This document shows positions 6,807 to 44,010 of a DNA stretch of 64,000 nt, piece after piece; within the stretch, counting starts at the first letter, position 1, and the number at the start of each line of letters is the position of its first letter. This DNA is from Shouchella patagoniensis. GTDB lineage: Bacteria > Bacillota > Bacilli > Bacillales > Bacillaceae_D. Position numbers and translations under genes: made by a program. The DNA lies in the NCBI RefSeq assembly GCF_002019705.1, contig NZ_KV917377.1:4279938-4343937 (forward strand). The letters run 5' to 3'. The notes beneath the pieces were generated by a model that searched no databases, was not told where the DNA came from, and saw only the letters and a program-made list of their open reading frames with translations.

Positions 6807-7980
6807 CTATCTTATTATTGCGCTTTCTATATTGTCTAGTACCTCTTTGGAGTTACTGAAATTAATTATTAAATAATTTTCATTGATGTACTCAGAAAAA
6901 ATCTTTTTTCCGTAATGTTTAGCGTCATTAAATTCCTTTTCATCTCTACGAAATGTCTTTCCATCCTTCATATAATTAAGTGTGGATTGATCCAATAAGT
7001 CTTCAATTTCACATTCCGTATTTCCATTTATGAGAGGGACAGTTAGTACATATAAATTGTTACTTATATTAAGCATTCTGGTATTTAAAAGTGTATCAAT
7101 CCTACCTTGTTTTAAATCTGCGTAGTTAATAAATTTCCTAAGAGGCCTTGGTTTTTTAGAAGCTACACTTTCATTATCAAACAGTAAAAATACTGGATTT
7201 CGACTTTTAACTTTTAAATCATCCCTAAAAGTTTTTGAGAAATTACGGAATTGACCGTTCTTATCAGAGTAATAATTATATATATTTTGTAATCCTGTAT
7301 CTCCATCTAATGGTATTCGTAATAAATATGATAACCTTTCAGATTTTCTTGGAAAAGATACCCTGAATTCAAAAGTACCATCATTTTGTTTTTTAATAAG
7401 TTCTGGATATTGAGTGTATAAGTTTTTAAGATCTGCTTTTATATAAATTATATCAGTCTTACCCTCAGTTACTATTAGTGGTTTAGGGTTTCCATAAAAG
7501 TATCTAAAGAAAAGAAATTTTTGATATTGTTTTTCGGTTGAGCTTAAATTTTGCAGCTTATAATCCTTATACTTATTCTCGCCTTTTAATTCCCGATTAA
7601 AGATATCAATTTGATTAATAAAAGCAAATCTACCTTCTAATTGTCCAAGCGTTCCATTTATATTATTAATTTTGTCTATCTTAAAAGAACCTTTGATGTA
7701 CAATCTATGGGCCATTGATCGAGTATATTTAATATAATCTTTAGGGACGCTTATTTTTTTGTTAACTACATTCCAGTTACAACTTGCCTTGAACCATTAA
7801 ATTGGACTCTAGTTTTCTTCTGATTTACTCGCAATCCATTTTCATGTATCTCTTTAGTTATCATTTCAATAAAAGACTCTTCTTTAGAAATAAATTCTTT
7901 ATCATTTGTAGAGAAAGTTAAATCATCTGCATAACGTGTAAACGTCATATTGTATTTTCGGGCTATCTTCTGCAATCTAA
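6807..7980 (-). pseudogene. retron-type reverse transcriptase fused to TOPRIM domain, 5'-truncated and frameshifted
   Basis: The upstream part (7766-about 7980) carries the RT catalytic motif FTRYADDLTFST and the following RVNQKKTRVQFNGSRQVVTG block typical of retron RTs. After a one-base frameshift near 7766 the frame continues VVNKKISVPKDYIKYTRSMAHRLY into a roughly 300-residue C-terminal part with TOPRIM hallmarks (LIVTEGKTDIIYIKADL, FLLFDNES). Retron RT-TOPRIM fusions of the Ec67 type are anti-phage systems made of this protein plus an msr-msd RNA. Here everything 5' of the YADD block, including the RNA locus, is gone: the sequence switches abruptly to a truncated cat gene at about 7980. 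Non-functional; a relic of a defence island. Confidence 0.85.
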
Positions 7981-8402
7981 CATGGTACTGGGATCAGTTA
8001 GATCCAATGTATACGGTGTTTGATCGTTCGTCCGAATTGTTTTCGGGTATATGGACACCTGCATATGACGATTTTAAACCATTTTATGAGCTTTACCTTG
8101 CAGATGGTGAGAGATACAATGGGACAGGGAAATTGTTCCCGAAAACACCCATTCCAGAAAATCTGCTCTCTATTTCGATGATTCCGTGGACTTCGTTTAC
8201 GGGATTTAACTTGAATGTAACAAACAATCCAACTCATTTGTTGCCTATTCTCACAGCAGGGGGATTTGTGCATAAAGACGGGTTAATGTATTTACCGTTG
8301 TCCTTTCAAATTCATCATGCCGTTTGTGATGGGTACCATGCAGGACTATTTATGAACCGTGTTCAGGAACTGGCGGAACGTTCTGGAGAGTGGCTTTTAT
8401 AA
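7981..8402 (+). pseudogene. cat: chloramphenicol acetyltransferase (type A), 5'-truncated
   Basis: The last about 140 residues of a CatA-type chloramphenicol O-acetyltransferase are preserved, from YWDQLDPMYTVF through NPWTSF-like (MIPWTSFTGFNLNV) to the catalytic HHAVCDGYH near the C-terminus. Roughly 75 N-terminal residues are missing because the sequence switches to retron RT (opposite strand) at about 7980. An ATG at 7950 lies in the RT part and is not a genuine start. The enzyme is a trimer with the active site between subunits; without its N-terminal third it is unlikely to confer resistance. Confidence 0.88.
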
Positions 8403-34984: not shown

Positions 34985-35281
34985 ATGGGATATAACAACG
35001 ATTATAAAGTAGATTCATACTATTCAAATTCTTATAAGAATGGCAGTAAAAAAGAATGTGATTGTGATTCATTCTTTAAGAACATCTCCCGCGGGGAAGA
35101 AGTAAAGGTATTCCTTAAAGGTGGCGGTCATGTTTCTGGTGAATTTATCGATGTCCGCGGCAATTTAGTTTATCTTGCAAAAGCTGACTGTCATCGTCAC
35201 GAGAAATGTAAATGTGACGATGAGCGTAAAGTGAAAATTTCCACGATCTGCTGTGACGATATTGTAGCAGTAGAGGTTTAA
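34985..35281 (+). CDS. Cys-rich small protein, possible spore coat/exosporium component
   Basis: 98 residues, ATG after GGAAGGAGG. A Tyr/Asn/Ser-rich N-terminus is followed by a CDCDSFF segment and a compact beta-rich domain (GEEVKVFLKGGGHVSGEFIDVRGNLVYLA) with further Cys/His pairs (CHRHEKCKC, TICCDDIVAVEV). The domain resembles small Sm-like barrels of coat-associated proteins in spore formers; eight cysteines suit a cross-linked layer. Function inferred from composition only. Confidence 0.65.
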   Translation: MGYNNDYKVDSYYSNSYKNGSKKECDCDSFFKNISRGEEVKVFLKGGGHVSGEFIDVRGNLVYLAKADCHRHEKCKCDDERKVKISTICCDDIVAVEV

Positions 35282-35307
35282 ATATAAATATAGGAAACAC
35301 TTTTATG

Positions 35308-35336
35308 GCCCAGGACGCGTGACGTTCTGGGCTGTT
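35308..35336 (+). terminator. terminator of the Cys-rich protein gene
   Basis: GCCCAGGACG pairs with CGTTCTGGGC (one G-U) around a 5-base loop. Confidence 0.7.
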
Positions 35337-35884
35337 CTTCTTCGTCTATTTAATATAAATCATTAACTCGATTCGAGTGGCTTCTCGATCTACCTTAAAA
35401 TGGTCAACACGTGCATTTACATATTGCTTGATAAGCGTCAAAAAGATGTTTTTTAAACGATTTTAAGATCGATCCATTCTTGAGAAACCCTAGTGGTTTG
35501 ACAATGCGTTTATAGAACGGTTCATTAAATAAGTCCGGGAATAGGACATGTATGTGATGATTGAAGTGTAATTAAAAAGGGCCAGAAAATTGTATATTAT
35601 AATATTATGTAGAAGTTAATCTTATTTGTAGACGCACTGTAAAAATTATATGATTTAATTAAAAGCAATCCATTTATTTCAAAAACTGTGTTACATTCCA
35701 ATAGTACGAAACAATAGGGGGGAAAAAAGGGAATGGCAAATAAAATGTTTACTGAAAAGTAACTGTTATCTAAATTTACCTTATTTATTCCAATAAAAAG
35801 ATTGACAATTTTAAATTTAATATTTAAGGTAATTTTAACGAATAGACAAAACTATTAAAAATTAAAGTGAGAGGAGCAAATCAT
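35337..35884. promoter_or_regulatory. long upstream region of the amine/amino-acid operon
   Basis: AT-rich. A minus-strand fragment ending at 35346 (VDREATRIELMIYIK) looks like a lost gene's tail. Near the operon, TTGACA at 35802-35807 is a good -35 with a weak -10 17 nt on. It lies between inverted repeats AAATTTACCTTATTTATT (from 35772) and AATATTTAAGGTAATTTT (from 35818), whose TTACCTTA/TAAGGTAA cores are exact. This could be a regulator site. A tiny frame at 35733 (MANKMFTEK) follows a G/A-rich ribosome-like site. Confidence 0.4.
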
Positions 35885-38599
35885 TTGAAAAATATTAACC
35901 CTTCTATTCATGGGCTCATGCAAATTTTTCATATGGATAAGGCTTATATAAAAGGATCACGCAATCGATTATATGATAAATTTAGCAATGAATATATTGA
36001 TTTCACTTCTCAATATGGGGCACTACCGTTAGGGTACAATTCTGAAGAGCTTTGGCAAGATATCATGATGTTTAAAGAAAACCAATACCCAAGTTTGTGT
36101 CAGCCGTCGGCCCCTTTTTTTGCACAGGAATTAGCTATCCAACTAACTAACATCTTTCCGGCGGACCTTAATATTTGTACATTTGCGCAAAGTGGTGCGG
36201 AGGCGACAGAAGCTGCAATAAAGTTGGCAAGGGCTAAAACGAAAAAAGAAAAGATAGTATCTTGTCAGAGAAGTTTTCACGGCAAAACACTCGGGGCTTT
36301 ATCAGTTACTGGGCAAAAAAGCTACCAAGAGCCTTTTTTTATCCATCAAGAATGTTACCCGAAAATCCCTTACAACGACCTTGAAAGCCTTGCGGAAATC
36401 CTTAAAGAAAGGGGAGATGAGATCGCAGCGTTTATTGTTGAGCCGGTTCAAGGTGAGGGTGGCGTCCATATCCCTGATGAACATTACCTGTCTGAAGCAA
36501 TTGATTTGTGCAACATATATGGCGTATTAGTAATTATTGATGAGATTCAAACAGGATTAGGAAGATTAGGGAATTGGGCTGTAACAGTGGAGGAAAATTT
36601 ATTACCAGATATCGTGCTGTTATCTAAAGCGTTAGGTGGGGGATTGGTTCCCATTTCAGCTTGTATTAGTAGAGAGTCAATTTGGACAGATCGATTTGGG
36701 TTGAACCATAGCTCTACATTTGCCAATAATAACTTTACCTCTTATGTGAGTTTATCGTTTATTAATTCAATAAAAAAACAATCTGATTTCTTTGAGAACG
36801 TGATTAACTTAGGAAACGAACTCAGAAACAAGCTAAATGGGATTAAAGAGAAATGGCCAGGGGTCATTAAGGAAGTGCGAGGGAGAGGTTTATTATCTGC
36901 TATTGAGTTTGAGTCAATTGATGCAAGTGATTCATTTGAAATGGCAAACCTTATTTCGTTTGGCGGTTACGGGTATATGATTTCTGGGTATTTGCTTAAT
37001 GTTCACTACTTAAGAGTTGCCCCTTTTTTAAATGATCCATTGACGTTACGAGTGCAGCCGCCATTAAACATGAATTATGCAGATATAGACTATTTCTGTG
37101 AAGCTTTTGATCTCCTGTGTGAGATTATTTATAAAAAAGATTTTTATTTGCTGTATCGTTATACCGTTGGTGACTGCCGTAAACCGATTAAAGTGAGAGA
37201 CTACCGGAACAGAAATGCCCCTATTCTTTCATCCATGTTAGATGAGAAGAGTCAATTAGTCGGGTCCTTTGCGTTTCTCTGTCATTATCCTTCTACCACT
37301 GATCTTATAAAGAATACCCCTTCGTTTGAACAATTTACTGAAGCTGAATTAAAAGGGATTTTAACATGGGAGGCTGACTTTTCTGGTGCAGGCGTGATCT
37401 GTAAAATGCCGGCCATAAAAGGGGCTGATGGTAATTATGTTGAAGGTTGGCTAATTGGAATTACTTACGGCGGAGAAGAAATTCTCCACCGTCCAAAAGA
37501 AGAGGTGTTAGGAGCAATTAAAGAAGGCGTTAAACTGGCAAAAGAGTTAGGTGCTGATGTTATTGGTTTAGGGGCATACACTTCAATTGTGACGAGAGGA
37601 GGCTTTGATTTACTAGATGAGTCTGTGACATTAACAACAGGGAATACGCTTACGATTATTAATGCCACAGAAGCCATGTTAAAAGGAGCACAGATGCTTG
37701 ATCATCGTATTTCAGAATCTAATGTTGGAATTATTGGTGCAAATGGTGCTATTGGTCGAATTGGTTCCTATTTATTAGCGAAAAAAACATCCCGATTAAC
37801 GCTTATCGGTAAAAAGTCCAATAATCCAACTGTAAATCACAATCGACTAAAAAAATTGGCCAATGGAATTTATCTAGACTGTCTTGTTGTTAATCAAAAA
37901 AACATCGGGATTCGAAAACGGGTTTTAGATGTTCTGAACATAGCTCGACTGACGGAGCAATTTCAAGAAGAAATAAACAGGTTAGATGGAATGGTCAATC
38001 TAGCTAAGATTAATAAAAAAGCTGTTCCGAATGTCATTGATTCCATTGAGTCTATCTTCCATGGATTAAATGAACAGATTCCAATCGGCTATAGTGTTCA
38101 TTTAGAAGAAGAGATTTCCGAAATGGATGTGATCCTTACAGCAACTAGCTCAATGAGTGAGTTTATTCCGGTGGATTTAATTAAGACAGGGACGGTTATT
38201 TGTGATGTTTCTCAGCCGCCAAATGTCGGAAAACATGTAGAAAAACGGCGTAAGGACGTTCTGATTATTGAGGGTGGACTCGTGCAATACGCTGACCCTA
38301 TTCGCTTTGGACAAAATTTAGGCTACGAAGCTGGGCAAAATTTAGCTTGCTTATCAGAAACGATTTTGCTGTCACTTGACCAAGCTGTAAAAAGCTATGG
38401 GATAGGTGGACGTATTCGAATGGAAGACGTCTATTATATTCAAAAACTGGCGGAAAAACATCAATTCCAATTGGCGGATTTGCAAAGCTTTGGAAAAAAA
38501 GTAACAAACGATGATGTACTAAATATCCGCGCGGAGGTATTGCTACGTCAGGCAGAGGTTTCACGTTTAGCCAGTGAAAAAGAGGTGGTTGACGAATGA
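35885..38599 (+). CDS. class III aminotransferase fused to acyl-thioester (acyl-ACP) reductase-like domain
   Basis: A 904-residue bifunctional protein. The start is TTG at 35885 behind GAGAGGAG. Residues about 1-420 form a class III PLP aminotransferase (QSGAEATEAAIKLAR, CQRSFHGKTLGALS, FIVEPVQGEGG, IIDEIQTGLGR, PLP lysine in LLSKALGGG). Residues about 430-900 resemble long-chain acyl-ACP/thioester reductases (EGWLIGITYGGEEIL, GADVIGLGAYTSIVTRGG, TTGNTLTIINA, then Rossmann GIIGANGAIGRIGSYLLA). Such a pair could reduce an acyl thioester to the aldehyde and transaminate it to an alkylamine, like TamH in tambjamine biosynthesis. The last codon overlaps the next start (ATGA). Domain calls are firm; the reaction is inference. 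Confidence 0.85.
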   Translation: MKNINPSIHGLMQIFHMDKAYIKGSRNRLYDKFSNEYIDFTSQYGALPLGYNSEELWQDIMMFKENQYPSLCQPSAPFFAQELAIQLTNIFPADLNICTFAQSGAEATEAAIKLARAKTKKEKIVSCQRSFHGKTLGALSVTGQKSYQEPFFIHQECYPKIPYNDLESLAEILKERGDEIAAFIVEPVQGEGGVHIPDEHYLSEAIDLCNIYGVLVIIDEIQTGLGRLGNWAVTVEENLLPDIVLLSKALGGGLVPISACISRESIWTDRFGLNHSSTFANNNFTSYVSLSFINSIKKQSDFFENVINLGNELRNKLNGIKEKWPGVIKEVRGRGLLSAIEFESIDASDSFEMANLISFGGYGYMISGYLLNVHYLRVAPFLNDPLTLRVQPPLNMNYADIDYFCEAFDLLCEIIYKKDFYLLYRYTVGDCRKPIKVRDYRNRNAPILSSMLDEKSQLVGSFAFLCHYPSTTDLIKNTPSFEQFTEAELKGILTWEADFSGAGVICKMPAIKGADGNYVEGWLIGITYGGEEILHRPKEEVLGAIKEGVKLAKELGADVIGLGAYTSIVTRGGFDLLDESVTLTTGNTLTIINATEAMLKGAQMLDHRISESNVGIIGANGAIGRIGSYLLAKKTSRLTLIGKKSNNPTVNHNRLKKLANGIYLDCLVVNQKNIGIRKRVLDVLNIARLTEQFQEEINRLDGMVNLAKINKKAVPNVIDSIESIFHGLNEQIPIGYSVHLEEEISEMDVILTATSSMSEFIPVDLIKTGTVICDVSQPPNVGKHVEKRRKDVLIIEGGLVQYADPIRFGQNLGYEAGQNLACLSETILLSLDQAVKSYGIGGRIRMEDVYYIQKLAEKHQFQLADLQSFGKKVTNDDVLNIRAEVLLRQAEVSRLASEKEVVDE

Positions 38600-39780
38600 G
38601 TAAAATAAAAACAGCAAACCAACATGAAGAGCACTTAGTTGGAGACAAGCTTAAAGATAGCATTTATCGGGATGACTGGCTCTTGTATACAACAAGTGAT
38701 GAAGACTCTGATTCAGAAATAAGAGCTCTCGATATTCAAAAAGAAGATACCATTGTTTCTGTTACAGGCAGTGGCTGTCGCAGTTTAGCCTTACTTGCCA
38801 AGCAACCTAATAAGCTTATTTCAATTGATGCTAACCCTTATCAAAATTTTTTGCTGGATTTAAAAGTTGCGTCGATTCGACATTTTGAAAGAGATGAATG
38901 TTTAGCGTTTTTTGGAATAACACCAAGTGAAAATCGGCGAGCCATGTTTTATAAGATTAAAAATGACTTATCAGAGCCAGCGCAAAACTTTTGGTTAACT
39001 CATATTGAAAAAGTGGATAAAGGGTTTATTTACTTAGGTAAACATGAAATGTTCTACAAAAAATATATGGGTTTCTTCTTGTTTCGCTTTAGACGAAAAC
39101 AATTTAAAGAAATACTTCAGTGTGACACAATTGAACAGCAAAGAGAATACTACGAAAAAAATTGGAACACTTTTTTGTGGAGAAGAGCCGTTAAGCTGCT
39201 GAGTCAAAGAGTATTCTTTGAAAAATTTCTTGGTGATCCAAGTTATTTTAACCAAGTGGATAAAGAGTTCTCTATAGGTGATTATTTGTTGTCAAGGTTT
39301 GACCATACGTTCAAGCATCATTTGGCTAAAGAAAATCATTTTCTAACCTTTCTATTCTGTGGCCAATATATCAATGATGTGGGCTTGCCAGTTTATTTGT
39401 TGAAGGAAAACTATGAGACTGTAAAAAACAACCTTAATCAGTTGGAAGTCGTAACCGGGAGAGTGGACTCTTATTTATCCGCTTTACCTAATCGATCAGT
39501 TGATAAGTTTTCATTATCTGATATTTCGGGCTGGATTCCTGAAACCGAATTTGGCACCATTCTTGAGGAAGTAAAACGGACAATGAAACAGAATGGAAGA
39601 CTGTGTTACAGAAATTTTCTTGCTAAACGGACTCTTAGTGAAATGGACATTCTTGGTTTGAAGCAGGATAAAACGATCATGAATGAGTTGGATACGACTG
39701 ATCGTGCATTTGCTTTCAGTTTTGAAGTAGCTCAGAAGGAGGATGAAAATGAAACCACATTACGAGATCGAATTGTATGA
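38596..39780 (+). CDS. DUF3419/BtaA-like S-adenosylmethionine 3-amino-3-carboxypropyl transferase
   Basis: 394 residues. SIYRDDWLLYTTSDEDSDSEIRALDIQ and VTGSGCRSLALLAKQPNKLISIDANPYQNFLLDLKVASI are the SAM-binding start of the DUF3419/BtaA family. FLLFRFRRKQFKEIL, NWNTFLWRRAVKLLS and FSLSDISGWI continue the family pattern. BtaA transfers the aminocarboxypropyl group of SAM to diacylglycerol in betaine-lipid synthesis; the methylating partner BtaB is not here. Its ATG overlaps the aminotransferase stop and its 3' end overlaps the dehydrogenase by 32 bp, so it is translationally coupled in a three-gene operon. The acceptor may be the amine made by the upstream enzyme (inference). Confidence 0.85.
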   Translation: MSKIKTANQHEEHLVGDKLKDSIYRDDWLLYTTSDEDSDSEIRALDIQKEDTIVSVTGSGCRSLALLAKQPNKLISIDANPYQNFLLDLKVASIRHFERDECLAFFGITPSENRRAMFYKIKNDLSEPAQNFWLTHIEKVDKGFIYLGKHEMFYKKYMGFFLFRFRRKQFKEILQCDTIEQQREYYEKNWNTFLWRRAVKLLSQRVFFEKFLGDPSYFNQVDKEFSIGDYLLSRFDHTFKHHLAKENHFLTFLFCGQYINDVGLPVYLLKENYETVKNNLNQLEVVTGRVDSYLSALPNRSVDKFSLSDISGWIPETEFGTILEEVKRTMKQNGRLCYRNFLAKRTLSEMDILGLKQDKTIMNELDTTDRAFAFSFEVAQKEDENETTLRDRIV

Positions 39781-40903
39781 TGAAGAAACCAATACAAAGG
39801 TCTTTATCGTCATTGATTGTCTGATAGGTAATTTAGCGGCGGGAGGCGTCCGAATGAGCCCGACTGTGACAATGGATGATATCCGAAGCTTAGCCCAGTT
39901 GATGACAAAGAAAAATGGTGTAATGGAAATTCCACTAGGAGGCGCGAAGATTGGAATTGTAGGTGATCCTGAAAGCGAAGATAAAGAAGAAAAGATAAGA
40001 GCTTTTGCCAAGATGGCCGAATCGGTGTTAAGAACAAAGCTCTTAATCGGGGAAGACATGGGCATAACAAGCCAAGATGTCAAACTGGTTTATGAATCGA
40101 TTCACCTTGATCCAAGTGAATTGGTTGTCGAAGTTCATAAGCAGAAAGGTCTTCATATTCAGTTGCCTGAAGATAAAAGCATTAATGATTTGTTAAGTGA
40201 AGAGTTTATGGGGTATCTTGCTGGTTTTGGACTGATGGAAGCGATGGAGGAAGCTGCAAATTTTACGAATATAGATCTTAACAAATCTAAAGTAGCGCTT
40301 CAAGGTTTTGGGACAGTTGGCAGTGGAATTGCCATGCTAATGTTGGAAAAAGGTTCTACAATAACAGCGGTAAGCGATATTCATACATGTATTTATAGAG
40401 AAACAGGCTTTTCTCTTGCTGATCTTCAAGTATTAAAAGCGAATGGGCGTGTCTTTCAGTCAGAGTCATTAAAGAATGATAAAAAGCTTGACCCCAATAA
40501 ACTTTTTTCGCTGCCTGTTGATATTTTGATTCCAGCTTCTGTTTCAAACATTATAGACATTGACAATGCAGACCAAATTAAAGCTGGGCTTATCGTAGAG
40601 GCTGCGAATTCCCCAACAACAAAAGAGGCAGAACAAATCTTATTAAAAAAGAACAAGATGATTCTCCCCGATTTTGTTGTAAATGCGGGATCAGCGACAG
40701 GGTTTGGTTTGCTAATCACAGGACAAGCAGAGTTTCATAATGTTTTTGAAGAATGTGCACAACGAATAAGAAGAACAGTAAAAACCATTCTTACAGAGAG
40801 TTTGAAGAGCGAAAAAACACCGCGTGAGGTTGCGGATGCGATTGCGGAACAGAACTTGAAAGAAATATTAACAAAAGAAGAAGCAAAGGTGGAATCAAAT
40901 TAA
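39749..40903 (+). CDS. Glu/Leu/Phe/Val dehydrogenase family protein
   Basis: 384 residues from the ATG at 39749 (AAGGAGG six bases upstream; the ATG at 39743 abuts that site). Landmarks: GGVRMSPTVTMDDIRSLA, MEIPLGGAKIGI (catalytic Lys; the usual GGGKGG is modified), GEDMGIT, Rossmann LQGFGTVGSGIAML, VEAANSPTT and NAGSA. The family reversibly deaminates an amino acid with NAD(P). The modified glycine-rich loop and biosynthetic neighbours suggest a specialised substrate, possibly the aminocarboxypropyl moiety or the amino donor of the aminotransferase (inference). Confidence 0.87.
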   Translation: MKPHYEIELYDEETNTKVFIVIDCLIGNLAAGGVRMSPTVTMDDIRSLAQLMTKKNGVMEIPLGGAKIGIVGDPESEDKEEKIRAFAKMAESVLRTKLLIGEDMGITSQDVKLVYESIHLDPSELVVEVHKQKGLHIQLPEDKSINDLLSEEFMGYLAGFGLMEAMEEAANFTNIDLNKSKVALQGFGTVGSGIAMLMLEKGSTITAVSDIHTCIYRETGFSLADLQVLKANGRVFQSESLKNDKKLDPNKLFSLPVDILIPASVSNIIDIDNADQIKAGLIVEAANSPTTKEAEQILLKKNKMILPDFVVNAGSATGFGLLITGQAEFHNVFEECAQRIRRTVKTILTESLKSEKTPREVADAIAEQNLKEILTKEEAKVESN

Positions 40904-40944
40904 ATCAATTCAAGTAATGAGTACGTGCGAATGGTTAGGCATGA

Positions 40945-40991
40945 TTGACACCTGATAAATATTTATTATAAGCTATTAGTTATATAACTAA
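40945..40991 (+). promoter_or_regulatory. promoter and candidate TetR operator
   Basis: TTGACA (40945) and TATAAG (40967) at 16 nt are followed directly by the perfect 16-bp palindrome TTAGTTATATAACTAA (40976-40991) around the expected start point, 22 bp before the TetR gene. It suggests autoregulation of the TetR unit. Confidence 0.65.
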
Positions 40992-41012
40992 CTGATTGGT
41001 GGGGATCAAACC

Positions 41013-41612
41013 ATGGCTGAACCTAATGTCATTACAAAGCAAGACCTAATTGAATCTGCTAAAACGTGTATTGTTAAAAACGGAGTCAATAAATTAACGC
41101 TTAAAGCCGTAGCGGAAGGAGCAGGAGTGACGCAGGGCACCGTATATTACCATTTTAAAACGAAAGACCAGCTGATGGTTGAGGTGGTAAGTGATATGTG
41201 CCAGACTTCTTGGGATAGGTTGGAGCGAATGAAAAAGAATTCAGACCAACAAGTGAAGGAATGGATTCAAACGGGCCTTCAATCTGCAAGTAAACGAAAC
41301 TCAAGTGACTCTTTTTATCACTCCTTGTTTTATTCATTAATTACAGCTAGTCTGCATAACAACAAAATTCGTGAGCAAATTAGTGGATTGTTGACTTATG
41401 AAAACCAAGTGCTGGAAAAACAAATTGAAGCAGTAGCAGGGAAAGAACTTTATGGAGTGTCGGCAGAAGTCTGGAGTGTGTTAATGAACGCTTTAATAGA
41501 CGGATTAGCAATTCAGTCTATGATGATAGAAGATTTTGATGCGAATAAAGCCTTTAAAGGCCTTGAAACACTACTCATAAAACAGATGGAAGACAATCAG
41601 CCTTCAACTTAA
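41013..41612 (+). CDS. TetR/AcrR-family regulator
   Basis: 199 residues; the N-terminal helix-turn-helix reads CIVKNGVNKLTLKAVAEGAGVTQGTVYYHFKTKDQLMVEVV, and a ligand domain follows. It is first in a unit with the DUF5367 and acyl-CoA dehydrogenase genes and lies 110 bp after the biosynthetic operon. Many TetR proteins next to acyl-CoA dehydrogenases sense acyl-CoAs. Likely targets are its own promoter palindrome and perhaps the operon upstream. Confidence 0.9.
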   Translation: MAEPNVITKQDLIESAKTCIVKNGVNKLTLKAVAEGAGVTQGTVYYHFKTKDQLMVEVVSDMCQTSWDRLERMKKNSDQQVKEWIQTGLQSASKRNSSDSFYHSLFYSLITASLHNNKIREQISGLLTYENQVLEKQIEAVAGKELYGVSAEVWSVLMNALIDGLAIQSMMIEDFDANKAFKGLETLLIKQMEDNQPST

Positions 41613-41648
41613 AGAGAAATTAATTCTAAGCACAGGAAGTGATGACAT

Positions 41649-42023
41649 TTGTTTTTTCTATTTTGGGGTTTTTTAGTGTGGTTGGGAGCAACGGCTATCT
41701 TCCGTTTATTAGGACAGTTTTTTTTTACGAGTGATAATACATTGTTTTTAGTTGCTACTTATCTTATTGTCATTCCTTTAATATTGGTTTTAACGCTCCC
41801 ACTTTACCGCTATAAAAAAGTGGATGCGTTTAACCGGTTAAAAGCAGCCATTTTTATTGCTTTACCTGGAATGTTATTAGATGTAGTGGTATTGATTTAT
41901 TTCTCAGATGTTTTTGTAAACTTGGAACCGGAAATGGATCGAATGTTTGCATCGTGGCTTTTGTTGGCTTATTCGATTATTCTTCTTACAGGTTTGACAC
42001 CTAACCGAAAACACAGTTCTTAA
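41649..42023 (+). CDS. DUF5367-type four-helix membrane protein
   Basis: 124 residues, start TTG at 41649 after AGGAAG. Four hydrophobic segments with short charged loops (LPLYRYKKVDAFNRLKAA, EMDRMF) match DUF5367 proteins of bacilli, whose function is unknown. 36 bp after TetR and 20 bp before the acyl-CoA dehydrogenase, so cotranscribed. It might export or shelter a lipophilic product (speculative). Confidence 0.75.
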   Translation: MFFLFWGFLVWLGATAIFRLLGQFFFTSDNTLFLVATYLIVIPLILVLTLPLYRYKKVDAFNRLKAAIFIALPGMLLDVVVLIYFSDVFVNLEPEMDRMFASWLLLAYSIILLTGLTPNRKHSS

Positions 42024-42043
42024 AATATAAAGGAGGTACGAAT

Positions 42044-43156
42044 ATGTCTTTGTTTTTAGAGAAGGAAAGGCAAGTATTTAAGCAGTATTTTCCGAATGTT
42101 GATGAAAATTTAGAGCAAGCTTCTTTGTGGGAACGTGAAATGAATTCCGATGGGATGATTCAATTAGCCAAAGAATTTGGAGTGACTTCCTTGATGATTC
42201 CAAAAGAATATGGTGGCAAAGGGGCTAATGCCCTCGATGGCATTTATATACAACGTTGGATTGGAAGCAAATCACCTTCCCTTGCCGTCTCTTTAATGAT
42301 GCACCAATTCTCTGTTGCTTCTCTTATCGAAGCGGCAAAAAGACAACCTAGTTTGCAGGTTGTACTCAAGGAAATTGCATCGAACAACCTCTTGTTAGCT
42401 TCAGCTTTTGCAGAAGGGATAGAAAATAATCTGTATACGCCACTTGTTACAGCAAGGGAAACGGAAGGCGGTATCGTCGTAAATGGAACAAAAAAACCGT
42501 GCACAAATTCAAGAACGATGGATTTGCTTACAGCAAGCGTAAGTCTCGCGAACGGTGAGTTGGCTGTTATTACGATCCCGGCGGATACAGAAGGAATTCG
42601 TGTGAATGATTTTTGGGATCACTGGATTTTAAAAGGAACACATACGGAAGAAGTGGTATTAGAGAATGTGTTTGTTCCGAATGAATGCATTTATAAAGCG
42701 GGGCCGGCAGAAAGCGTTGATTCAACCATTACAAACGGGTTACTCTGGTTTGAACTTTTTATGATTGCCACATATATTGGAGTAACATCGGCACTTGTAG
42801 AAAAAGTGAATCAGGCTACAAACGTACCATTGGAAAAAGTATTTGATCTAATGTCTGAAATGGAAGGCACAGTGAGCGCATTAGAAGGCTTAGCTTTTAA
42901 ATTTGAAAGTCAGCAGTATGAAGAGTCCATACTACAAGAAACGCTTTTCGTTCGAAATCATATTGATAGGACGCTGGAAAGAGTATCCACACAAGCAACC
43001 AAAGTACTTGGTGGATTAAACTATCTCACGTCTAAGGAAACCTCTTATTTGTTATTAACTTGCCAGTTAATCTCGTTCCATCCACCATCCAAGAAAGAAG
43101 TGTTTCAATTATTCGAATTATATAAGCGTGGAACGGTACAAGAAATCTCCGTGTAA
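42044..43156 (+). CDS. acyl-CoA dehydrogenase family protein
   Basis: 370 residues of the FAD-dependent acyl-CoA dehydrogenase fold: MIPKEYGGKGAN and SLMMHQFSVA in the N-terminal helical domain, ASAFAEG and VNGTKKPCTNSRTMD in the beta domain, and DRTLERVSTQATKVLGGLNYL in the C-terminal helical domain. The usual catalytic Glu position is not obvious and the protein is somewhat shorter than beta-oxidation enzymes, which suggests a specialised desaturase-type role, as for TamP of tambjamine synthesis. ATG after AGGAGG. Confidence 0.85.
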   Translation: MSLFLEKERQVFKQYFPNVDENLEQASLWEREMNSDGMIQLAKEFGVTSLMIPKEYGGKGANALDGIYIQRWIGSKSPSLAVSLMMHQFSVASLIEAAKRQPSLQVVLKEIASNNLLLASAFAEGIENNLYTPLVTARETEGGIVVNGTKKPCTNSRTMDLLTASVSLANGELAVITIPADTEGIRVNDFWDHWILKGTHTEEVVLENVFVPNECIYKAGPAESVDSTITNGLLWFELFMIATYIGVTSALVEKVNQATNVPLEKVFDLMSEMEGTVSALEGLAFKFESQQYEESILQETLFVRNHIDRTLERVSTQATKVLGGLNYLTSKETSYLLLTCQLISFHPPSKKEVFQLFELYKRGTVQEISV

Positions 43157-43210
43157 CGAGAGAAGTCCCCTTGAGGTGTGTTCGTACTTTTAAGGGAATT
43201 TTAACAGTCT

Positions 43211-43246
43211 AAACCACTAGGTGCTACATCAGACCTTAGTGGTTTT
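43211..43246 (+). terminator. terminator after the acyl-CoA dehydrogenase
   Basis: AAACCACTA-GGT and ACC-T-TAGTGGTTT pair, followed by TTTCTTA. Confidence 0.75.
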
Positions 43247-43275
43247 CTTATTCTGTATTTCAATATCATACGCAG

Positions 43276-44010
43276 AACTCGGCGATCAGATCGTTTTAGT
43301 CATTCATTCGGGTTCTCGAAATTTAGGGAAACAGATTGCAGAGCATTATCAAAATCGTCCGTATGATGAATTAATGGAAATGAAAGTAGAGAAAGATACG
43401 CTCATTGTGCAATTGAAAGCAGAAGGTCGTCAAAAGTGACATACAAGATGTGGTGCTTTCATTGAAGCCACCTTCTGTCAGAAAAGAACTTGTATACCTT
43501 CAAGGTAAAGGGTTTGAAGACTATATGAATGATATGTTGATTGCTCAACAGTACGCTCTTTTAAATCGAAAAGCAATGGTTGATGAAATCGTGACACGTA
43601 TGGTTTGGCAAATCGTTGATTCCTTCACGACCATTCATAACTACATTGATATGGAGAATCGAATTTTACGGAAAGGCGCGATTTCCGCTCAAAAAGGTGA
43701 AAGAGTCATTATCCCTATTAATATGAGAGACGGCAGCATCATCACAGAAGGAAAGGGGAATCCTGATTGGAATTACTCTGGCCCTCACGGCTCAAGTCGT
43801 TTAATGAGTCGATCAAAAGCAAAATCTTCTTTAGATGTCATTGAATTTAAAAAGACAATGGAGGGCGTATGGACAAATTCTGTCTCTGAAAACACGTTAG
43901 ATGAAGCGCCGATGGTGTATAAGTCGATTACGGATATTTTGAATAACGTGAAAGAATCGGTTGAAGTTCAACACATTATAAAACCATTATATAATTTCAA
44001 GGCAAATTAA
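43276..44010 (+). pseudogene. rtcB: RNA ligase RtcB, 5'-truncated and frameshifted
   Basis: The homology starts abruptly at ELGDQ, then VIHSGSRNLGKQIAEHY (the conserved HSGSRNxG of RtcB). It shifts frame near 43435 and continues LQGKGFEDYMNDMLIAQQYALLNRKAMV, HNYIDMENRILRKGAISAQKGERVIIPINMRDG (with the guanylylated-His neighbourhood in GPHGSSRLMSRSKAK) to the normal end. About 150-190 N-terminal residues are missing. RtcB joins 2',3'-cyclic phosphate and 5'-OH RNA ends; this copy cannot work. Confidence 0.88.

What the first reader, a model, noticed from the sequence alone, without database searches (positions are those of the whole stretch)
35885..43156. Candidate uncharacterised alkylamine / amino-lipid biosynthetic locus
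Seen: a class III aminotransferase fused to an acyl-thioester reductase-like domain, a BtaA-like SAM aminocarboxypropyl transferase and an ELFV dehydrogenase, all overlapping, then TetR, DUF5367 membrane protein and acyl-CoA dehydrogenase on the same strand. Known: TamH (reductase plus aminotransferase) and TamP (acyl-CoA dehydrogenase) make an unsaturated fatty amine for tambjamines; BtaA moves the 3-amino-3-carboxypropyl group from SAM to a lipid hydroxyl. Inference: the locus makes an alkylamine and decorates it with an amino-acid head group, possibly a zwitterionic lipid, signal or metallophore. I know of no described pathway with this combination.
Basis: partly seen in the sequence, partly recalled or inferred. 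Interest (0 to 1): 0.85.

Follow-up and report, generated by a model that had tools for sequence, protein, structure and literature searches.

The report
Conserved putative fatty-amine cassette in bacilli
Six neighbouring genes in a relative of Bacillus recur in the same order in other bacilli and probably turn a fatty acid into a fatty amine that carries an amino-acid head group; I found no description of such a product, and the chemistry is inferred, not tested.

Summary
Window 35885-43156 encodes a class III aminotransferase fused to an acyl-ACP-reductase-like domain, a DUF3419 (BtaA-like) protein, an ELFV dehydrogenase, then TetR, DUF5367 and an acyl-CoA-dehydrogenase-like flavoprotein. 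The C-terminal domain is of the PigE/AAR kind (catalytic Cys aligned). New points: the ELFV enzyme lacks the residues recalled to hold glutamate's side chain, so it is probably no glutamate recycler; DUF3419 and ELFV are adjacent in 8 of 8 genomes found, two of them without the fusion, so ELFV probably processes the DUF3419 product; TetR-DUF5367 also occurs as a pair without the cassette (7 of 13 loci); the last gene is nearest DszC-type monooxygenases, so the TamP analogy is weak. Best reading: alkylamine synthesis, aminocarboxypropyl transfer from SAM, then tailoring. Every chemical step is inferred; the acceptor of DUF3419 is the weakest. Side finding: related fusions in Rhodobacterales lie near a VPLPA-CTERM-type gene in 17 of 20 loci.

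The parts
35802..35807 (+). TTGACA box before the first gene, invariant in the four Shouchella upstream regions aligned; possible -35 box
   Evidence: not listed by the promoter scan, which found no excess of promoter-like sites
35885..38599 (+). class III aminotransferase fused to acyl-ACP-reductase-like / thioester-reductase domain; TTG start with ribosome site (residue numbers in this report count from the upstream GTG 35867)
38596..39780 (+). DUF3419 (BtaA-like) putative SAM-dependent 3-amino-3-carboxypropyl transferase of its own clade
   Evidence: weak fold hint
39743..40903 (+). ELFV (Glu/Leu/Phe/Val) dehydrogenase, side-chain pocket not of the glutamate type; start by homology probably 39749
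40945..40950 (+). TTGACA box before TetR, invariant in four Shouchella loci; possible -35 box
   Evidence: not listed by the scan
40976..40991 (.). perfect 16-base palindrome TTAGTTATATAACTAA, invariant in four Shouchella loci; possible TetR operator; no such palindrome found before TetR in L019 and L022
41013..41612 (+). TetR-family regulator
41649..42023 (+).
42044..43156 (+). acyl-CoA-dehydrogenase-superfamily flavoprotein, nearest solved relatives by profile DszC-type monooxygenases

Best explanation
A compact biosynthetic cassette. (1) The fusion's C-terminal domain takes an acyl-ACP (or acyl-CoA) onto Cys828, reduces it to the aldehyde, and the N-terminal PLP domain (Lys254) transaminates it to a fatty alkylamine. 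(2) The DUF3419 protein transfers the 3-amino-3-carboxypropyl group of SAM, most likely to that amine, giving an N4-alkyl-2,4-diaminobutyrate, a zwitterionic single-chain aminolipid. (3) The ELFV dehydrogenase, whose pocket is not of the glutamate type, oxidises (or re-aminates) the new alpha-amino acid head group. (4) The ACAD-superfamily flavoprotein oxidises the chain or the nitrogen. TetR, probably through a palindrome behind its own promoter, controls the second gene group with DUF5367 (export, tolerance or membrane stress); two relatives add a multidrug-type MFS exporter, which suggests a secreted or self-toxic product. Shown by sequence: gene content, conserved order, selection, domain identity, key residues. 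Inferred: every reaction.
For: Six genes in the same order in the window, G030/L017, G031, G033/L018, L019 and L022; protein identities 70-89% within Shouchella and 54-58% to L019 and L022 for DUF3419, ELFV and ACAD; omega 0.033-0.215. TamH, same TA-TR order, converts C12-ACP to C12 amine with L-Glu and NADH (PMC9594044, abstract and first part of Results read); the catalytic Cys of SeAAR aligns with Cys828. PigE model 5.9e-151 for the whole fusion. DUF3419 and ELFV adjacent in 8 of 8 genomes found with this DUF3419 clade, two of them without the fusion beside it. The positions of the GDH side-chain Lys and Ser (roles recalled) are Ala33 and Phe321, while K57, K69 and D105 are kept; the host has two further strong GDH-like matches. 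An MFS gene in L019 and L022 (family scan of the L019 one).
Against: DUF3419 is only 21-25% identical to a BtaA with a BtaB-like neighbour and its acceptor cannot be read from sequence. G831, one contig, has DUF3419-ELFV-DUF5367 but no AAR match at E<=1. No acyl carrier protein or ligase among the ten window genes scanned, whereas TamH needed the TamA acyl-ACP and did not take C12-CoA. A 4-alkylamino-2-oxobutyrate would be prone to beta-elimination (recalled chemistry), so the ELFV direction is unsure. Both AlphaFold models are poor (pLDDT 47 and 57) and no PDB fold match is significant. Presence is patchy: 4 of 13 genomes of the genus and 3 of 397 of the order for the reductase domain. The palindrome is not found in L019 and L022.
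Confidence: 0.4

Rival explanations
1. Two functional blocks that merely travel together: DUF3419-ELFV-DUF5367 makes or modifies an alcohol- or glycerol-linked amino-acid (homoserine-ether, BtaA-like) lipid, and the aminotransferase-reductase fusion supplies a separate amine.
For: G831 carries DUF3419-ELFV-DUF5367 without an AAR match, and the draft genome G051 has DUF3419-ELFV with only aminotransferase-part matches to the fusion. BtaA is named as the betaine-lipid transferase in PMC10491745 (passages); that it acts on a lipid hydroxyl is recalled.
Against: In 6 genomes the fusion is the first gene directly before DUF3419; no BtaB-type methyltransferase among the window genes scanned, unlike the DUF3419-methyltransferase pair in L131.
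Confidence: 0.25
2. The product is a metallophore or small cyclic amino acid rather than a lipid: the fusion acts on a short or carrier-bound non-fatty thioester, and aminocarboxypropyl plus ELFV build a chelating or ring-forming head.
For: NAS-like enzymes put the same group on amines in metallophores (PMC10491745 passages); chain length cannot be read from sequence.
Against: The review says that BtaA does not appear homologous to NAS, CntL or MccD; no metal-transport or opine-dehydrogenase family among the ten window genes scanned. The flanks of the relatives were not scanned for such genes.
Confidence: 0.15
3. ELFV only regenerates L-glutamate for the transaminase, as an ordinary glutamate dehydrogenase.
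For: Best family hits are archaeal and haloarchaeal GDH models (1e-48, 166 bits, far below the 620-bit cut-off), the best PDB matches are GDHs, and TamH uses L-Glu.
Against: Side-chain-binding Lys and Ser are Ala and Phe (roles recalled); the pair with DUF3419 persists where no AAR match is found; the host has two further strong GDH-like matches.
Confidence: 0.1
4. Aldehyde/amine detoxification locus rather than biosynthesis.
For: TetR-DUF5367 also occurs as a pair without the cassette and the extra transporter in L019 is multidrug-type.
Against: An aminocarboxypropyl transferase would cost SAM for detoxification; the reductase kind runs from thioester to aldehyde, that is, makes aldehyde.
Confidence: 0.07

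Closest known systems
PtTamH (tambjamine YP1; Pseudoalteromonas tunicata)
   Same: N-terminal class III transaminase, C-terminal AAR-like thioester reductase with GxxGxxG and catalytic Cys (paper's Results; Cys of SeAAR aligned here)
   Different: No pyrrole or prodiginine-type genes among the window genes scanned or near the 46 loci tested, apart from an AMP-ligase-like match in L017 and L018 and PKS matches in L062; instead DUF3419-ELFV. The TamH sequence itself was not available here.
PigE (prodigiosin)
   Same: Best solved relative of the reductase domain (4ppm) and best NCBIfam model
   Different: Opposite domain order (reductase first) and below the equivalog cut-off (504.5 of 850 bits)
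BtaA (betaine-lipid synthesis)
   Same: DUF3419 family; columns shared in the alignment
   Different: 21-25% identity; no BtaB in the cassette; own clade tied to ELFV
Glu/Leu/Phe dehydrogenases
   Same: ELFV family; both active-site Lys and the Asp kept (roles recalled)
   Different: Ala at the side-chain position where the aligned own GDH has Lys and the aligned own Leu-DH-like protein has Leu
DszC and prolyl-PCP dehydrogenases (PigA, RedW)
   Same: N- and middle domains of the ACAD superfamily
   Different: No Pfam C-terminal ACAD domain in 5 of 5 homologues; invariant FHPPSK near the C-terminus where, by a hand alignment from memory, short-chain ACADs have the catalytic Glu

Membership tests
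TamH-type TA-TR fusion | Class III transaminase first, AAR-like reductase second | tested here: met
TamH-type TA-TR fusion | GxxGxxG and catalytic Cys | tested here: met
   residues 624-630 and Cys828
TamH-type TA-TR fusion | Makes fatty amine from acyl-ACP with NADH | not testable with these tools
   -
TamH-type TA-TR fusion | Tambjamine/prodiginine genes nearby | tested here: not met
PigE equivalog | Score over NCBIfam cut-off 850 | tested here: not met
   504.5 bits
Cyanobacterial AAR (TIGR04058) | Score over cut-off 449.7 | tested here: not met
   55 bits
DUF3419 (PF11899) | Score over Pfam gathering cut-off | tested here: met
   227.8 against 28.2 bits
BtaA betaine-lipid enzyme | Neighbouring BtaB N-methyltransferase | tested here: not met
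   compare L131
BtaA betaine-lipid enzyme | Aminocarboxypropyl transfer to diacylglycerol | not testable with these tools
   -
Glutamate dehydrogenase | Side-chain-binding Lys (K89) and Ser (S380); roles and numbering recalled | tested here: not met
   Ala33 and Phe321 by alignment
Glutamate dehydrogenase | Alpha-carboxylate Lys, catalytic Lys and Asp (roles recalled) | tested here: met
   K57, K69, D105
Acyl-CoA dehydrogenase (desaturase) | C-terminal ACAD domain with catalytic Glu | tested here: inconclusive
   No C-terminal Pfam ACAD domain in 5 of 5 homologues; no printed alignment reaches the C-terminus; model too poor

The most novel reading that the evidence does not exclude
A new class of single-chain aminolipids, N-alkyl-2,4-diaminobutyrates and their 2-oxo or N-oxygenated derivatives, made by a transferable cassette in bacilli and used as a signal, surfactant or antibiotic; in two genomes of another family of the order (G831, G051) the DUF3419-ELFV pair lies directly behind a histidine kinase and regulator that look ComP/ComA-like, with a ComQ-like gene before them in G831.
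Probability: 0.17. Interest if true: 0.85.

Novelty: new variant of a known kind. Interest (0 to 1): 0.6.

Why it matters
It joins TamH-type fatty-amine synthesis and BtaA-type aminocarboxypropyl transfer in one compact, conserved cassette, present in cultured strains such as Shouchella oshimensis DSM 18940, with an amino-acid dehydrogenase that appears dedicated to the new head group. That makes a product with a predictable mass shift directly testable, and offers a way into the acceptors of DUF3419 proteins, a family mentioned in only 4 papers of the library searched.

Tried and rejected
Rejected: shikimate/quinate dehydrogenase for the C-terminal domain (20.6 bits against a cut-off of 24.3; AAR/PigE alignments). 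Rejected: betaine-lipid operon (no BtaB). Rejected as the likeliest role: GDH recycling. Weak: TamP-like desaturase for the last gene. Considered and set aside: a functional link between DUF3419-ELFV and the ComP/ComA-like pair in G051/G831 (about 200 bases lie between regulator and DUF3419, with a terminator-like stretch read by eye; two genomes only; comX was not looked for). Led nowhere: the AlphaFold model of the ACAD-like protein (pLDDT 47) was not searched; the model of DUF3419 (pLDDT 57) gave no PDB match at E<=0.001, though 18 of the top 20 chains were SAM methyltransferases. The promoter/terminator scan of 35200-43500 showed no excess over shuffles (20 against 23.5; 6 against 5.5) and did not list the two TTGACA boxes that I name. 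Family of G113 searched with the DUF3419 alignment: 0 of 29. Literature: the listings (7 papers; 25 of 201 shown; 0; 4; 15 of 124 shown), and for the side finding 84 (12 of 47 shown) and 117 (5), showed no paper describing the combination, as far as titles and abstract starts tell; only that open-access library was searched.

The 20 Rhodobacterales loci were chosen by me from record titles; no background rate of VPLPA-type genes was measured. The tree used 32 of the 80 loci plus the window, 3 PigE and 2 plasmid fusions, with long-branch warnings. Of the 8 genomes over the cut-off outside Shouchella and G051, I looked at 4 (G044, G323, G260, G400), and left G260 out of the alignment. In one search unrelated neighbouring ORFs from L151 and L153 got into the alignment and were ignored; L149 and L152 (minus strand) were not aligned. 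TetR and DUF5367 of L019 and L022 were matched by phmmer but not aligned.
Full report
OBSERVATION. The first gene starts at TTG 35885 behind AGAGGAG. The first three genes overlap; a 109-base gap then precedes TetR-DUF5367-ACAD. In that gap a TTGACA box and a perfect palindrome, TTAGTTATATAACTAA (40976-40991), are invariant in the four Shouchella sequences aligned. The palindrome occurs once without mismatch in the window, but no such palindrome was found before TetR in L019 and L022, and the promoter scan does not list these boxes. The window lies in a 4.6 Mb genome of 3 contigs; two genomes of its genus match the named records Shouchella miscanthi AK13 and S. oshimensis DSM 18940.

CONSERVATION. 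The DUF3419 protein is found in 4 of 41 genomes of the family, all four in the own genus of 13; the reductase domain in 3 of 397 genomes drawn from the order, all own genus. In the three other Shouchella genomes the six genes stand in the same order at 70-89% identity; the gene next on either side differs from the window's. Of these 80, 44 carry aminotransferase and reductase in one reading frame and 4 (L017, L018, L019, L022) have DUF3419 and ELFV beside it (counted). The two that are not Shouchella, Bacillus sp. SA1-12 and Metabacillus bambusae, keep all six genes in order and add an MFS gene between ELFV and TetR, EmrB/DHA2-like in L019. dN/dS in 18 comparisons was 0.033-0.215 (dS is near saturation in the window-L017 and most L019-L022 pairs). 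In a tree of the reductase domain the five cassette rows form one clade (100/100), nearest to two Thermincola fusions with weaker support (93/91, with long-branch warnings elsewhere in the tree).

PARTIAL COPIES. Pfam DUF3419 is over its cut-off in 12 of 397 genomes of the order: 3 Shouchella, G051 and 8 others. G051 belongs to the same clade, and a search of its family found one more, G831 (2 of 41). Both have DUF3419 (G831: 43-44% identity) followed directly by ELFV; in G831 DUF5367 follows, in G051 the contig ends inside ELFV, whose frame is also broken. Neither shows the reductase domain: the draft G051 gives only aminotransferase-part matches, G831 nothing at E<=1. G113 keeps ELFV (first 27 residues missing), TetR, DUF5367 and ACAD, with no DUF3419 or fusion match in the 18 kb examined, a remnant. 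So DUF3419 and ELFV are adjacent in 8 of 8 genomes found with this clade, and fusion and ACAD stand with them in 6 of 8. Of the 8 other DUF3419 genomes of the order I looked at 4: three aligned proteins (L111, L112, L114) are 26-27% identical to the window's and sit with an iron-containing redox enzyme (scanned in L111 only) and two genes without a Pfam match that look acetyltransferase-like to me. In a sample of the phylum the clade alignment matched 4 of 398 genomes: the own one, G518 and G630 (other contexts; G630 29% identical), and one stop-riddled stretch.

THE ENZYMES. Fusion: same domain order as PtTamH, which makes C12 amine from C12-ACP with L-Glu and NADH and did not take C12-CoA (PMC9594044; abstract and first part of Results read). 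The catalytic Cys of S. elongatus AAR aligns with Cys828 and the GxxGxxG site with 624-630. PigE, the best solved relative, has the reductase first. Of 46 loci tested with ten prodiginine-cluster proteins at E<=1e-10 (PigE matches left out), 43 gave no match; L017 and L018 have an AMP-ligase-like match and L062 PKS matches. DUF3419: over the Pfam cut-off, no PDB relative by sequence, 21-25% identical to a BtaA-type protein with a methyltransferase neighbour. Its model is poor; 18 of the top 20 Foldseek ranks are SAM methyltransferases but none is significant. ELFV: in alignment with an own-genome GDH and a Leu-DH-like protein, the position of the GDH side-chain Lys is Ala33 and that of the Ser is Phe321, while K57, K69 and D105 are invariant in the five homologues. 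The roles of these residues are recalled knowledge. ACAD-like protein: Pfam N and middle ACAD domains but no C-terminal one in 5 of 5 homologues; the profile's best PDB matches are DszC flavin monooxygenases (6.7e-16), then a cyclohexanecarboxyl-CoA dehydrogenase and others, among them prolyl-carrier dehydrogenases. It may oxygenate nitrogen or desaturate a chain; I cannot decide. TetR directly precedes DUF5367 in 7 of the 13 further DUF5367 loci looked at, without other cassette genes in the 3.3 kb seen, and L135 is the G113 remnant; so the pair was probably recruited, though DUF5367 alone also follows ELFV in G831.

MECHANISM. Most likely: acyl-ACP to aldehyde to alkylamine (fusion), aminocarboxypropyl from SAM to the amine (DUF3419), then change of the alpha-amino acid head (ELFV) and a flavin oxidation. 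The constant DUF3419-ELFV pairing, also without the fusion, argues that ELFV works on what DUF3419 makes. The same fact is the main argument against a fixed alkylamine acceptor. My estimates: conserved biosynthetic unit 0.93, alkylamine by the fusion 0.75, aminocarboxypropyl transfer by DUF3419 0.65, onto the amine 0.45, ELFV on that head group 0.5.

KNOWN OR NEW. Each enzyme kind is known; the combination was not seen in the listings searched or in the passages read of the SAM review PMC10491745. DUF3419 occurs in 4 papers of that library, by titles and abstracts on algae, plants and a smut fungus.

SIDE FINDING. In 17 of 20 Rhodobacterales loci with an AT-AAR fusion (none with a DUF3419 match), a gene for a protein with a [VI]P[LVI]PA-type C-terminal sorting signal lies within 3 kb: in 12 just downstream and facing the fusion, in 5 upstream. 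The 17 proteins are homologous to each other. L028, L034 and L043 lack it. Shared descent explains part of the count (three loci are Haematobacter), no background rate was measured, and an XrtD-like exosortase was seen in only 1 of the 80 loci (L052), besides the annotated one in L012. A review passage (PMC11631085) cites Craig et al. [quoted passage not shown] A fatty amine as acceptor or anchor for exosortase products is a testable idea.

Noticed in passing
L023, L027, L029, L031, L033, L035-L037, L039-L041, L044, L045, L048-L050, L052: Rhodobacterales AT-AAR fusion genes lie within 3 kb of a gene of one homologous VPLPA-CTERM-type protein family in 17 of 20 loci; possible fatty-amine anchor for exosortase products.
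   Followed up: partly
L127:3310-10272: DUF3419-ELFV-DUF5367 directly behind a polyprenyl-synthase (ComQ-like), PDZ-histidine kinase (ComP-like) and LuxR-type regulator (ComA-like); kinase-regulator-DUF3419-ELFV also in L110.
   Followed up: partly
L111:5785-9302, L112, L114, L132:3231-5460: Another DUF3419 group sits with two genes without a Pfam match (acetyltransferase-like by eye) and an iron-containing redox enzyme (scanned in L111), and on a Deefgea plasmid with such an enzyme plus speD.
   Followed up: no
L166:9014-12304: Remnant of the cassette in another family of the order: ELFV lacking its first 27 residues, TetR, DUF5367, ACAD, no fusion or DUF3419.
   Followed up: partly
window 43450-44010: C-terminal fragment of rtcB right behind the cassette; relatives have rtcB-like DNA far from their cassettes, so the cassette may have landed beside a broken rtcB.
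   Followed up: partly
window 6807-7715 (-) and 7950-8402 (+): In a low-G+C stretch (28%), an ORF matching the C-terminal half of an Ec67-type retron reverse transcriptase/endonuclease and beside it a C-terminal fragment of a type A chloramphenicol acetyltransferase; both truncated.
   Followed up: no
L030:989-3725: In a planctomycete contig aminotransferase and reductase are two overlapping ORFs, a possible unfused form.
   Followed up: no
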